From Selenomonadales bacterium (GTDB taxonomy: Bacteria > Bacillota > Negativicutes > Sporomusales > UBA7701), in contig JARKPR010000068.1 of assembly GCA_029975165.1 (NCBI GenBank), positions 1 to 64,000 of the forward strand: DNA of 64,000 nt, in the 5' to 3' direction. Each line of letters opens with the position of its first letter. The stretch's first letter is position 1. A model generated the notes under the pieces. The model was not told the origin of the DNA, did not search any database, and saw only the letters and a list, made by a program, of their open reading frames with translations. A program made the translations under genes and the position numbers. Of this stretch, positions 47,881 to 51,089 are shown piece after piece.

Positions 47881-48111
47881 GGTTGGCATCACCTCCCCGT
47901 TGTCGAGCCTATCTGCGGCCGGAACGGTTATGTTTTTCCGGCCATGTAAAAGTTCGACAGGATTCGCTTGAACCCTGCCGCTTTGCCGGCCGAAATGGAA
48001 GTCGCCGGGCGAGCCGGGAGCGGCGACGGCGTTGTCAAGGGGGAATCGAGGAAGGCAAAAAAGTGCCCGGAGGACCGGCCTCCGGGGTCTGCGGGCCACG
48101 GGGGACGACGA

Positions 48112-48522
48112 TCAGCGCATCAGGCCCGAGCAGCCGCGCGTGCAGGTGCCGCTGCAGCCGCTGCCGCAGTTGTTGGAGCAGCTGCCGCGACAGGTCTGCT
48201 GGCAGGAGCCGGTGCAGGTCTGGTAGCAGCTGCCGCGGCAGGTGTTGTCGCAGCCGTAGCTGCAGGTACCGCCGCACGAGCCGGAGCAGGCGCCGGCGCA
48301 GCCCCAGTTGCAGTTGCGGAGGGGGGTCCGGTCGCCGGCCGCGCCGGCGTCGGGGACGGTCGTCCGGCCACCCTGCCCCGCTGCGGCGAGCGGGCCGGAG
48401 GCCGCGGCGATCGAGCCGAGGCCGAGGACGGCGATGGACGGCAGGACGGCACCGGCCGTTTTGAGGAAGTCGCGCCTGGTTAAGCCGGCGGCGGGCCTGT
48501 TTTTCTTGTCCGGCTTTTTCAT
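48112..48522 (-). CDS. CXXX-repeat RiPP precursor with twin-arginine leader
   Basis: 136 residues from ATG 48522 (AAGGAGG 6 nt upstream). The N-terminus has a twin-arginine motif (LTRRDFLKTAGA, R16-R17) and hydrophobic stretch (LPSIAVLGLGSIAAA). After a 25-residue linker, 16 cysteines follow at residues 71, 75, 79 and so on to 131, exactly every fourth residue, with small or polar spacers (CAGACSGSCGGTC, CRGSCYQTCTGSC). This is the substrate of the upstream maturases by position and pattern. Thioether or other Cys cross-links made by the radical SAM enzyme are the expected modification. Last gene of the four-gene cluster. Confidence 0.88.
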   Translation of the reverse strand: MKKPDKKNRPAAGLTRRDFLKTAGAVLPSIAVLGLGSIAAASGPLAAAGQGGRTTVPDAGAAGDRTPLRNCNWGCAGACSGSCGGTCSYGCDNTCRGSCYQTCTGSCQQTCRGSCSNNCGSGCSGTCTRGCSGLMR

Positions 48523-48564
48523 GGCCACCCTCCTTTCCGTCTAAGGGGAATGGGTCCTAAAGCG

Positions 48565-48864
48565 TCACTGGCGGCGCAGGTAGATGTCGCCGGTGGCGAA
48601 GTCGATTTCCCAGCTGTGGCCGCTGATGTTTTCCCAGCCGTAGGTGCGGCTTTTTTCGTCCCACCAGGCCTGGAATTTGCCGGCGGTGGCCGCCATGTCG
48701 GCGACGAGCCGTTCGTAGAGGGGGCTTGCGGCCGTTTCTTCGGCCGCCATGCCGACGAGGGCGCGGAAGAGTTCGCCGAGGGCGTTTTTGCGTTCGTAGA
48801 GGGCTTTGATTTCGTCGCGTTCCGCCGGGGTTACGGCGCCGATTTTCCGTCGCTGGTCATTCAT
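48565..48864 (-). CDS. CXXX-repeat peptide modification accessory protein
   Basis: 99 residues: VTPAERDEIKALYERKNALG, ELFRALVGMAAEET, YERLVADMAATAGKFQAWWD and SWEIDFATGDIYLRRQ. The helical body with a K-F-Q-x-W-W motif and closing beta-hairpin matches my recollection of a small conserved protein that accompanies CXXX-repeat maturases; its biochemical role is unknown (perhaps precursor binding). Its ATG overlaps the end of the maturase gene by 8 bp and it lies 42 bp before the precursor. Confidence 0.78.
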   Translation of the reverse strand: MNDQRRKIGAVTPAERDEIKALYERKNALGELFRALVGMAAEETAASPLYERLVADMAATAGKFQAWWDEKSRTYGWENISGHSWEIDFATGDIYLRRQ

Positions 48865-49810
48865 GGCCTAATCCTCCATCGCTGATTTGGCTGAAGGGGT
48901 CGAGGTAGTCGAGGGCGGGGATGGGCGCCTGGCGCGCGAAGGCGGGCAGGTCGGCGAGGCGCTGCCGGAGCAGGCGGGTGGTTTCGCGTTCGTGGTGGGC
49001 GAGCAGGCATTGCTGGCGGGAGGGGGTGTTCCATTCGAGGGTGGTTTTGCGGTTGAGGTAGATGCAGCGTTTGCAGTGCCAGGCGTCGCAGCGGGCGCAG
49101 ACGGGGGCGTTCTCCAGGGCGAGCAGGCGGGCGTTGGCGACGGCGATGCCGCCCGTGAGGCTGCCGACGGCGCCGGCGTGGAGGAAGCCGGGACAGAGGT
49201 GGAGGCGGCCGTCGGGGGCGACGGTGAGGTGGACGGTGCCGGCGTCGCAGTTGTTCATGCGGCTGAGGAGCAGGCGGTCGGAGAGGATGCTGAGTTCGGT
49301 GAGGGCGCCCTGCCGGTAGCGGGCGGCGAGCAGGCCGGCGACGAGGCCGAGCTGCCGGCGGTAGAGGGCGAGGTCGCCGTCGGTGTAGCGGTCGATGTCG
49401 AGGGGATAGAGGTTGAGGCGGGTAGTGCGTTCGAGAGCGACGCCGACGACGGCGGCCAGGTCGGCCAGGCGCTCGCGGGGCAGGCGGACGATGAGCTGGG
49501 GCCGGACGCCCGGGATGGCGCCGGGGTCGTCTTGGCCGGCGACGAGCACGGGGACGGCGTCGGGGTGGCGGCCAGCGAGGGCGGCGGGGACGATGGCGGC
49601 GGGGCCGGCGGCGGCGATGATGTCCCGGCAGGCGGCCGGCAGCGGGGTTTCGCCGTAGAGGAGGACGAGGGCCAGGGAGCGGCGGCGGGCGAAGGCGACG
49701 GCCGTCGCCAGGACGGCGGGGGACATGGTTTGGCCGGGACCGCGGCCGGACGGGTAGTAGCAGAAGGACGGGGCGGCGGTGTCGAGGAGGACGAGGAGGT
49801 GGGTCAGCAT
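48857..49810 (-). CDS. CXXX-repeat peptide maturase (SPASM-like, no radical SAM motif)
   Basis: 317 residues from ATG 49810. There is no CxxxCxxC motif. The N-terminal half (LLVLLDTAAPSFCYYPSGRG) is followed by a C-terminal cysteine-rich region like SPASM auxiliary clusters: MNNCDAGTVHLTVAPDGRLH, LCPGF, then CARCDAWHCKRCIYLNRK and QQCLLAHHE. It matches the companion maturase described for CXXX-repeat systems. Its start overlaps the radical SAM stop by 7 bp and its stop overlaps the accessory gene, so translation is coupled. It is probably a partner that binds extra Fe-S clusters. Confidence 0.8.
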   Translation of the reverse strand: MLTHLLVLLDTAAPSFCYYPSGRGPGQTMSPAVLATAVAFARRRSLALVLLYGETPLPAACRDIIAAAGPAAIVPAALAGRHPDAVPVLVAGQDDPGAIPGVRPQLIVRLPRERLADLAAVVGVALERTTRLNLYPLDIDRYTDGDLALYRRQLGLVAGLLAARYRQGALTELSILSDRLLLSRMNNCDAGTVHLTVAPDGRLHLCPGFLHAGAVGSLTGGIAVANARLLALENAPVCARCDAWHCKRCIYLNRKTTLEWNTPSRQQCLLAHHERETTRLLRQRLADLPAFARQAPIPALDYLDPFSQISDGGLGHE

Positions 49811-50976
49811 GTGCCGGCCCCCAGTTTCCGCCTGAGGCGGTCCCAGTAGTAGCGGTTGGCACGGACGCGGGCTTTGTGCATGGGGCAGATGTAGGTGGCG
49901 CGCTGGTAGATGGTGGCGGTGTCGCTGCATTCGTAGTTGAGGCCCTGGCACCAGGCGCAGCCGCTGGCGATTTGGCAGGCGACGCATTGGGGCGGGCTCT
50001 GCGCCAGGCGGGTGAGGGCGAGGAAGGGCCGCAGGCGGTTGGTGTCGAGGCCGTCGCGGCAGTTGCCGACGGACCTGGGCGCCTGCCGGCTCATGGAGTG
50101 GGGGGCGAAGCGGACGCAGGGGTAGAATTCGCCTTGGGCGCCGATGGCAAGCATTTTGCCGGACCCGCACCAGTTCTGGTTGTCGCCGGCGGGATCGAGG
50201 GGGCGGCCGATGGTGTCGTCGAAGAGGGAGCAGCGGTATTGCCGGTAGAGGCCGCGGTCGACGATGGCGTCGGCGAGGCTAAGGAGCTGGTCTTCGAGGA
50301 GGGCGTCGTCGCCCGGCTGCCAGATGTTTTCGAAGACGACGTTGATGTTGACGGTTTGGACGCCCAGCCCCCAGAGGTGGAGGACGCTGTCTTTGATGTA
50401 GGGCAGGTCGTCGTGGGCGATGGTGACTTTGGTGGCGGCGCCGGGGAATTGGCGCAGCCAGAGGGGGAGCTGGGCGGCGACGGCGTCGTAGGAGCCGCGG
50501 CCGTCGGGGAAGACACGCATGAGGTCGTGTTTTTCGCGGATGCCGTCGATGGTTATGCCGATGCTGAGGTGGGTGCGGTTTTTGGCGATGTAGCGCTGGA
50601 CGCGGGGGTCGCCGTACATGAGGCCGTTGGTGGATAGGCTGAAGCGGTAGCTGTCGAACCAGGGGTGGCCTGTTTCGTAGAGGCGGAGTTTGATGTAGTC
50701 GCTGATGCGGTCGATGAGGTCGATTTCGAGGAGGGGCTCGCCGCCGATGAATTCCCAGACGACGGAGGGCTCGGCGAAAAGCGCCCGTTCGCGCAGGATG
50801 TAGTCGACCGCCTGGCGGGCGACGGCAAGGTCCATGCGCCGGCCGGGGTTTTTGCCGACGAGGTAGCAGTATTTGCAGCGGAGCTGACAGTCTTCGGTGA
50901 CGATGAAGGTTATGTTTTTGGCGCGGTCTTCCTCCCAGGAAGGTTCCGGCCGCGCGAGCCGGTCAAGGTTGTCCAC
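49804..50976 (-). CDS. Radical SAM/SPASM peptide maturase of the CXXX-repeat type
   Basis: 390 residues from GTG 50976 (GCGAGG 5 nt upstream); GTG 50982 is an alternative. The radical SAM cluster motif is C30-x3-C34-x2-C37 (DCQLRCKYCYL), with a GGE motif (WEFIGGEPLLEI) and STNG strand. The SPASM-type cysteines lie in NWCGSGKMLAIGAQGEFYPC, CVACQIASGCAWCQGLNYEC and YICPMHKA. It would use S-adenosylmethionine to generate a 5'-deoxyadenosyl radical and modify the precursor core. First gene of the locus; only a weak promoter is visible upstream (51000-51060). Confidence 0.9.
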   Translation of the reverse strand: MDNLDRLARPEPSWEEDRAKNITFIVTEDCQLRCKYCYLVGKNPGRRMDLAVARQAVDYILRERALFAEPSVVWEFIGGEPLLEIDLIDRISDYIKLRLYETGHPWFDSYRFSLSTNGLMYGDPRVQRYIAKNRTHLSIGITIDGIREKHDLMRVFPDGRGSYDAVAAQLPLWLRQFPGAATKVTIAHDDLPYIKDSVLHLWGLGVQTVNINVVFENIWQPGDDALLEDQLLSLADAIVDRGLYRQYRCSLFDDTIGRPLDPAGDNQNWCGSGKMLAIGAQGEFYPCVRFAPHSMSRQAPRSVGNCRDGLDTNRLRPFLALTRLAQSPPQCVACQIASGCAWCQGLNYECSDTATIYQRATYICPMHKARVRANRYYWDRLRRKLGAGTC

Positions 50977-51089
50977 AGGCACCTCGCTGGCGGTTGCTGG
51001 TATTTATTGTATTTTTGCTACTGTTATACATGGTATAGGGAAAATCCTGCCAATTGGGAGGAGCGGCGGGAAAATATGTGGGCAAATGG

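What the first reader, a model, noticed from the sequence alone, without database searches (positions are those of the whole stretch)
48112..50976. Compact four-gene CXXX-repeat RiPP locus with coupled maturases
Seen: radical SAM/SPASM enzyme, SPASM-like maturase, 99-residue accessory protein and a Cys-every-fourth-residue precursor in one minus-strand run; the first three overlap by 7 and 8 bp. Known: radical SAM/SPASM enzymes install thioether and other cross-links on Cys-rich peptides, and this gene set resembles a bioinformatically defined CXXX-repeat maturation system. Inference: the second maturase and the 99-residue protein form a modification complex, and the product is a heavily cross-linked exported peptide. 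The product structure and biological role appear undescribed.
Basis: partly seen in the sequence, partly recalled or inferred. Interest (0 to 1): 0.85.

Follow-up and report, generated by a model that had tools for sequence, protein, structure and literature searches.

The report
Tat-exported cysteine-repeat peptide maturation locus
Four neighbouring genes make and chemically modify a small secreted peptide with a cysteine at every fourth residue; the set is a rare, already catalogued but apparently uncharacterised family, and comparing relatives suggests that the peptide's start doubles as an export tag and that one of the two 'maturases' is a radical enzyme that has lost its catalytic cluster.

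Summary
Three enzyme genes overlap by 7 and 8 bp and are followed by a precursor with 16 cysteines spaced exactly every four residues, under purifying selection in the genus. All three enzymes exceed NCBIfam cut-offs for the curated CXXX-repeat system (TIGR04115, TIGR04119, TIGR04116), and the repeat exceeds TIGR04114. So it is a new member of a known, apparently uncharacterised kind; the library searched held no paper on it.

Comparison of 25 loci in several phyla adds four points. (1) The precursor leader is twin-arginine-like (LTRRDFLK...). Six Bacteroidales loci carry their own tatA-tatC directly after the accessory gene; the four loci whose leader lacks RR carry a same-strand ABC exporter instead. 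(2) The second 'maturase' is predicted to fold like a complete radical-SAM/SPASM enzyme (Z 19.1 to CteB) but lacks CX3CX2C while keeping all seven SPASM cysteines: probably a pseudo-radical-SAM partner. (3) Natural fusions (radical SAM-second maturase; second maturase-accessory) support one complex. (4) A separate leader motif, LP-x-(L/I)-A, survives loss of RR in one ABC lineage: a candidate recognition element.

Best model: cytoplasmic cross-linking by the complex, then Tat export. Bond chemistry and biological role remain inferred.

The parts
49804..50982 (-). radical SAM/SPASM peptide maturase (TIGR04115); CX3CX2C at residues 32/36/39 and seven SPASM Cys, counted from the GTG at 50982; the alternative GTG start at 50976 fits the ribosome-binding site better
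   Evidence: (587 bits, cut-off 350)
48857..49810 (-). second 'maturase' (TIGR04119): predicted radical-SAM/SPASM fold without CX3CX2C, SPASM cysteines invariant; probable pseudo-radical-SAM partner
   Evidence: (190 bits, cut-off 150)
48565..48864 (-). 99-aa accessory protein (TIGR04116): predicted long helical hairpin with a small beta-sheet; found fused to the second maturase in relatives
   Evidence: (78 bits, cut-off 50)
48112..48522 (-). precursor peptide, 136 aa: twin-arginine-like leader (LTRRDFLK..VLPSIAVLGL), linker, core of 16 Cys every fourth residue
   Evidence: (TIGR04114 24.7 bits, cut-off 20; TIGR04117 37.1, cut-off 50)
48460..48483 (-). codons for LTRRDFLK, the twin-arginine-like motif of the precursor leader
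   Evidence: (PF10518 19.5 bits, cut-off 22.7)
48066..48086 (-). intrinsic-terminator-like hairpin (8 pairs, 7 GC) followed by a T run, just after the precursor stop; likely end of the transcription unit
   Evidence: consensus match only

Best explanation
This is a RiPP locus of the curated CXXX-repeat family. The ribosome makes a precursor whose N-terminus is at once a twin-arginine (Tat) signal and, through a separate LP-x-(L/I)-A motif, probably the docking site for the modifying enzymes. In the cytoplasm the radical SAM enzyme, working as a complex with a catalytically degenerate radical-SAM/SPASM partner and the 99-aa accessory protein, converts the Cys-every-fourth-residue core, most likely forming Cys thioether cross-links of the sactipeptide/ranthipeptide type. 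The modified, pre-shaped peptide then leaves through the Tat translocon, and signal peptidase (or, in some relatives, lipoprotein processing) frees or anchors it outside the inner membrane. Shown by sequence: gene set, family membership, periodic core, RR leader, loss of CX3CX2C in the partner, fusions, in-operon tatAC in relatives, exchange of Tat-type leader for ABC exporter. Inferred: complex formation in this organism, thioether chemistry, order of modification and export, leader recognition, final role.
For: Three enzymes exceed curated cut-offs. The radical SAM protein keeps CX3CX2C and seven SPASM Cys in all 15 aligned sequences. Its best non-self model is PapB ranthipeptide maturase (169 bits, below cut-off 340), and its best solved relative by sequence is the SCIFF sactisynthase CteB, E 3e-39. 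The predicted structure of the second maturase (pLDDT 80.5) matches CteB over 269 residues at Z 19.1 (Foldseek E 3e-10); only one of the three cluster cysteines remains (alignments), and all seven SPASM cysteines are invariant in 11 sequences. Fusions: radical SAM-maturase in L058; maturase-accessory in L075 and L076 (the latter two 64% identical to each other). RR leaders occur in 19 of 19 loci that have a readable precursor and no same-strand ABC exporter. TatA-TatC lie directly after the accessory gene in six of those, as an extra copy in five of the six genomes. Four of four loci without RR have an ABC exporter in the cluster. Three of those four keep K-TLPG(L/F)(A/G)F in the leader. TatC is present in the window's own genome.
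Against: The precursor scores below the Pfam TAT gathering score (19.5 against 22.7) and below TIGR04117 (37.1 against 50). No tool here predicts Tat export directly. In the window's genus tatC is not near the locus. RR/exporter coupling rests on few lineages: three of the four ABC loci are one clade, and five of the six tat loci are one clade. The L058 fusion is a single MAG gene, and its leader lacks the LP motif. The accessory gene is absent from the three L074/L077/L078 loci, so it is not universally needed. The Treponema genome has no detected TatC and its precursor is off the contig. No product mass is known; thioethers are inferred from relatives only.
Confidence: 0.6

Rival explanations
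1. The exported Cys-repeat peptide is mainly a metal-binding or metal-sequestering polypeptide whose thiols stay largely free; the radical SAM complex makes only a few modifications or a different one.
For: Cys-rich RiPP metallophores exist in another family (captophorins/bufferins, PMC12668002). The long strictly periodic Cys array with small residues (G/S/T/A/N/D 88% at +2 and +3) is compatible with thiolate clusters.
Against: No metal-resistance or metal-transport genes were noticed as recurring among the genes listed around the clusters (neighbours were not all family-scanned). The enzyme set is of thioether-forming type and is the only conserved catalytic content.
Confidence: 0.17
2. The radical SAM enzyme installs a non-thioether modification (for example epimerisation, C-C or C-N cross-links) on the X residues, and the cysteines form disulfides after export.
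For: Many SPASM maturases act on residues other than Cys (general knowledge). Export to an oxidising compartment is predicted by the Tat-like leader.
Against: Closest relatives by profile are thioether formers (PapB, SCIFF/CteB). The only invariant residue of the repeat is Cys; X positions vary. Few aromatic residues are present, so cyclophane chemistry is unlikely.
Confidence: 0.13
3. The second maturase (TIGR04119) is a catalyst with its own chemistry, for example using its SPASM clusters, rather than a pseudo-enzyme partner.
For: Its C-terminal SPASM domain is the most conserved part, and one N-terminal Cys (C17) is nearly invariant.
Against: It lacks CX3CX2C in every relative with a complete N-terminus, and the GGE motif is degraded. 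Fusion to the radical SAM enzyme or to the accessory protein fits a subunit role.
Confidence: 0.1
4. Chance or artefact: an unexpressed GC-rich repeat ORF beside unrelated Fe-S enzymes.
For: The window is GC-rich and full of long spurious ORFs.
Against: Same gene set in the genus and in several other phyla, purifying selection on the core, 16/16 Cys kept.
Confidence: 0.01

Closest known systems
NCBIfam CXXX-repeat peptide system (TIGR04114, TIGR04115, TIGR04116, TIGR04119)
   Same: All three enzymes exceed the curated cut-offs, and the repeat exceeds TIGR04114; same gene set.
   Different: The precursor misses the TIGR04117 whole-protein cut-off (37.1 against 50). It has an uninterrupted 16-Cys array, a longer linker after the leader, and no transporter gene next to the locus.
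PapA/PapB (freyrasin), ranthipeptide
   Same: Nearest other radical SAM model (NF047865, 169 bits). Substrate with repeated Cys-X3 spacing; six CX3D motifs are cross-linked (PMC10470005, PMC9413430).
   Different: Score far below the PapB cut-off (340). Residue i+4 is Cys, not Asp/Glu. PapA/PapB is not described with a pseudo-radical-SAM partner or a Tat leader in the passages read.
SCIFF sactipeptide maturase CteB (5WGG/5WHY)
   Same: Best solved relative of the radical SAM enzyme (E 3e-39) and best structural match of the second maturase (Z 19.1).
   Different: Radical SAM enzyme scores 100 bits against the SCIFF cut-off 425; different substrate type; the second maturase lacks the SAM cluster motif.
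TIGR04347 pseudo-SAM/SPASM protein
   Same: By its family name, a precedent for radical-SAM-fold proteins annotated as 'pseudo-SAM' (listed).
   Different: Other family; the second maturase did not hit it at E 1.
Captophorins/bufferins (MNIO-modified Cys-rich peptides)
   Same: Cys-rich, repeat-containing RiPPs (PMC12668002); that they are exported is my general knowledge.
   Different: Modified by multinuclear nonheme iron enzymes, not radical SAM; different genes.

Membership tests
NCBIfam CXXX-repeat peptide system | radical SAM protein above TIGR04115 cut-off (350 bits) | tested here: met
   587.3 bits, full length 1-359/359
NCBIfam CXXX-repeat peptide system | CXXX repeat peptide maturase above TIGR04119 cut-off (150) | tested here: met
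   190.0 bits, 3-208/210
NCBIfam CXXX-repeat peptide system | modification system protein above TIGR04116 cut-off (50) | tested here: met
   78.3 bits, 1-90/90
NCBIfam CXXX-repeat peptide system | target with CXXX repeats, TIGR04114 (cut-off 20) | tested here: met
   24.7 bits; 16 Cys every 4 residues
TIGR04117 precursor paralog family | precursor above cut-off 50 bits | tested here: not met
   37.1 bits; not filed under this precursor subfamily
PapB ranthipeptide maturase family | NF047865 cut-off 340 bits | tested here: not met
   169.3 bits
PapA-type ranthipeptide precursor | Asp or Glu at i+4 of each Cys (CX3D/E) | tested here: not met
   i+4 is Cys in every repeat of the window precursor
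SCIFF system | TIGR03974 cut-off 425 bits | tested here: not met
   100 bits
radical SAM superfamily (second maturase) | CX3CX2C [4Fe-4S]-SAM motif | tested here: not met
   one of three Cys kept; motif absent in the 10 sequences whose N-terminus is complete
SPASM domain (second maturase) | seven-Cys SPASM pattern (C-X12-G-X4-C ... CX2CX4CX2C ... C) | tested here: met
   all Cys invariant in 11 sequences; whole-fold match to CteB
Tat substrate (precursor) | twin-arginine motif (S/T)RRxFLK near the N-terminus, then a hydrophobic stretch | tested here: met
   LTRRDFLKTAGAVLPSIAVLGLG; RR conserved in 19 loci
Tat substrate (precursor) | PF10518 gathering score 22.7 | tested here: inconclusive
   19.5 bits, E 9e-4
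Tat substrate (precursor) | Tat-dependent export in cells | not testable with these tools
   indirect only: tatAC in the operon of six relatives
RiPP with thioether cross-links | mass loss of 2 Da per link and S-C bond | not testable with these tools
   needs co-expression and MS

The most novel reading that the evidence does not exclude
A RiPP family in which the leader is a Tat signal peptide, so that the Tat translocon can act as a filter passing only peptide already folded by cross-linking, and in which catalysis needs a heterocomplex of an active radical SAM enzyme with a pseudo-radical-SAM/SPASM subunit, possibly an electron relay or substrate clamp. Export route (Tat or ABC) has been exchanged in evolution while the modification enzymes were kept.
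Probability: 0.4. Interest if true: 0.78.

Novelty: new member of a known kind. Interest (0 to 1): 0.55.

Why it matters
The CXXX-repeat family seems to be known only as profile models, and the papers searched hold nothing on it. The comparisons give a concrete mechanism to test: Tat-exported RiPPs, a pseudo-radical-SAM subunit, and a leader with separable export and recognition motifs. If true it would link radical-SAM peptide chemistry to Tat quality control and give a compact four-gene system for making peptides with up to 16 side-chain cross-links. It also warns annotators that TIGR04119 'maturase' is probably not an independent catalyst.

Tried and rejected
Literature searches for 'CXXX repeat', the TIGR numbers, RiPP with twin-arginine or Tat pathway, and related names found nothing relevant; the 2011 paper on radical SAM systems that I wanted to check is not held. 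Foldseek gave no significant PDB match for the accessory protein model (best E 0.6, helical hairpins only), so its role is open; the predicted fold did not look like a RiPP recognition element, but this was not tested against one. A precursor for the Treponema locus could not be found (contig end). TIGR04117 found no second CXXX precursor in the window's genome except a weak hit with a stop codon next to another radical SAM gene. The S41 protease upstream was considered as a leader protease but rejected as part of the system: it is separated by a terminator-like hairpin seen in the sequence, is syntenic only within the genus, and was not noticed among the genes listed at the other clades' loci. 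The consensus scan found no sigma-70-type promoter upstream.

Full report
1. Observation. The minus-strand run is present as described. The radical SAM gene (49804-50982, or from the GTG at 50976) overlaps the next gene (48857-49810) by 7 bp, and that one overlaps the 99-aa gene (48565-48864) by 8 bp. The precursor follows after about 42 nt (48112-48522; the ATG has a good ribosome-binding site, with an alternative GTG at 48528). A terminator-like hairpin lies just after the precursor stop. The core is CNWGCAGACSGSCGGTCSYGCDNTCRGSCYQTCTGSCQQTCRGSCSNNCGSGCSGTCTRGCSGLMR: 16 Cys, every spacing exactly 4.

2. It is a real, conserved system. Of four other genomes of the genus sampled, three carry the full locus. 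In the core, 16/16 Cys are kept, pS is 0.24-0.48 and pN 0.01-0.13. In a sample of 300 genomes of the class, no genome outside the genus exceeds the TIGR04119 cut-off. Elsewhere the system is rare and scattered: 2 of 40, 1 of 150, 7 of 295, 6 of 395 and 1 of 385 genomes sampled around known carriers (the carrier itself included). A scan of named genomes gave Alphaproteobacteria, Fibrobacteres, Treponema and Bacteroidales MAGs.

3. Family. NCBIfam places the enzymes in the curated CXXX-repeat system above cut-off, and the repeat passes TIGR04114, while the precursor misses TIGR04117. The radical SAM enzyme is neither PapB nor SCIFF by those models' cut-offs, though these are among its nearest relatives.

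4. The second maturase. An AlphaFold model from 11 relatives (pLDDT 80.5, pTM 0.80) matches whole radical-SAM/SPASM enzymes: CteB Z 19.1 over 269 residues, then ChlB and the sulfatase maturase anSMEcpe. Profile comparison with the radical SAM partner from the same loci aligns them over both domains (probability 85, E 7e-6). Its FC(H/Y)Y motif lies where the third Cys of CX3CX2C should be; the other two Cys and the GGE motif are gone (the placement agrees but is weak). The SPASM cysteines (188, 206, 238, 241, 246, 249, 268) are invariant. I infer a pseudo-radical-SAM subunit. A role in electron relay is plausible, since PapB is reported to need intermolecular electron transfer through an auxiliary cluster (PMC10470005), but it is not shown.

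5. Physical coupling. In L058 one 721-aa protein contains TIGR04115 and TIGR04119. In L075 and L076 one 510-aa protein contains TIGR04119 and TIGR04116, and these two are 64% identical, so this fusion is not an assembly slip in one genome. The L058 fusion rests on one MAG. The accessory protein model is confident (pLDDT 90) but without a significant PDB match.

6. Leader and export. The window leader contains LTRRDFLKTAGAVLPSIAVLGLG. In 19 loci with a readable precursor and no same-strand exporter the leader has RR. Alphaproteobacterial leaders end in AxA-D-C, fitting signal peptidase I; several Fibrobacteres- and Bacteroidota-type leaders end in a lipobox-like LxSC/VTGC (my reading). In six Bacteroidales loci tatA and tatC follow the accessory gene directly (Pfam TatA_B_E and TatC well above cut-off where scanned), and five of these six genomes have at least one further tatC elsewhere. 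Conversely the four loci whose leader has no RR have a same-strand ABC exporter in the cluster (L058 with a subtilase as well; L074, L077, L078), although their genomes do encode TatC. The only ABC gene near an RR locus is on the opposite strand (L042). Some contigs are short (L040 has 391 bases after the cluster), so absence there is weak evidence. A naive Fisher test (my arithmetic) gives 1 in 8855, but a tree of the radical SAM proteins shows that these are about two ABC and two Tat lineages, and one origin of each is not ruled out, so the statistic overstates independence. Three ABC-type leaders still carry K-TLPG(L/F)(A/G)F, like the conserved LP-x-(L/I)-A of the Tat-type leaders, while the RR-to-P distance varies from about 8 to 13: this suggests two separable elements, RR for export and LP-x-(L/I)-A for recognition (inference; L058 lacks it).

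7. Chemistry. Over 415 repeats the X positions are G 24%, S 19%, T 17%; +2 is Gly in 42% and +3 is S/T/G in 68%. The +3 residue, just before the next Cys, is a candidate acceptor, but the data do not decide between acceptors or even prove thioethers. PapB links Cys to Asp/Glu at i+4 (PMC9413430); here i+4 is the next Cys.

8. Verdict. A new member of a known but apparently uncharacterised kind. New here, as far as the searched library shows: the Tat link, the exchange of export route, the pseudo-radical-SAM reading of TIGR04119, and the fusions.

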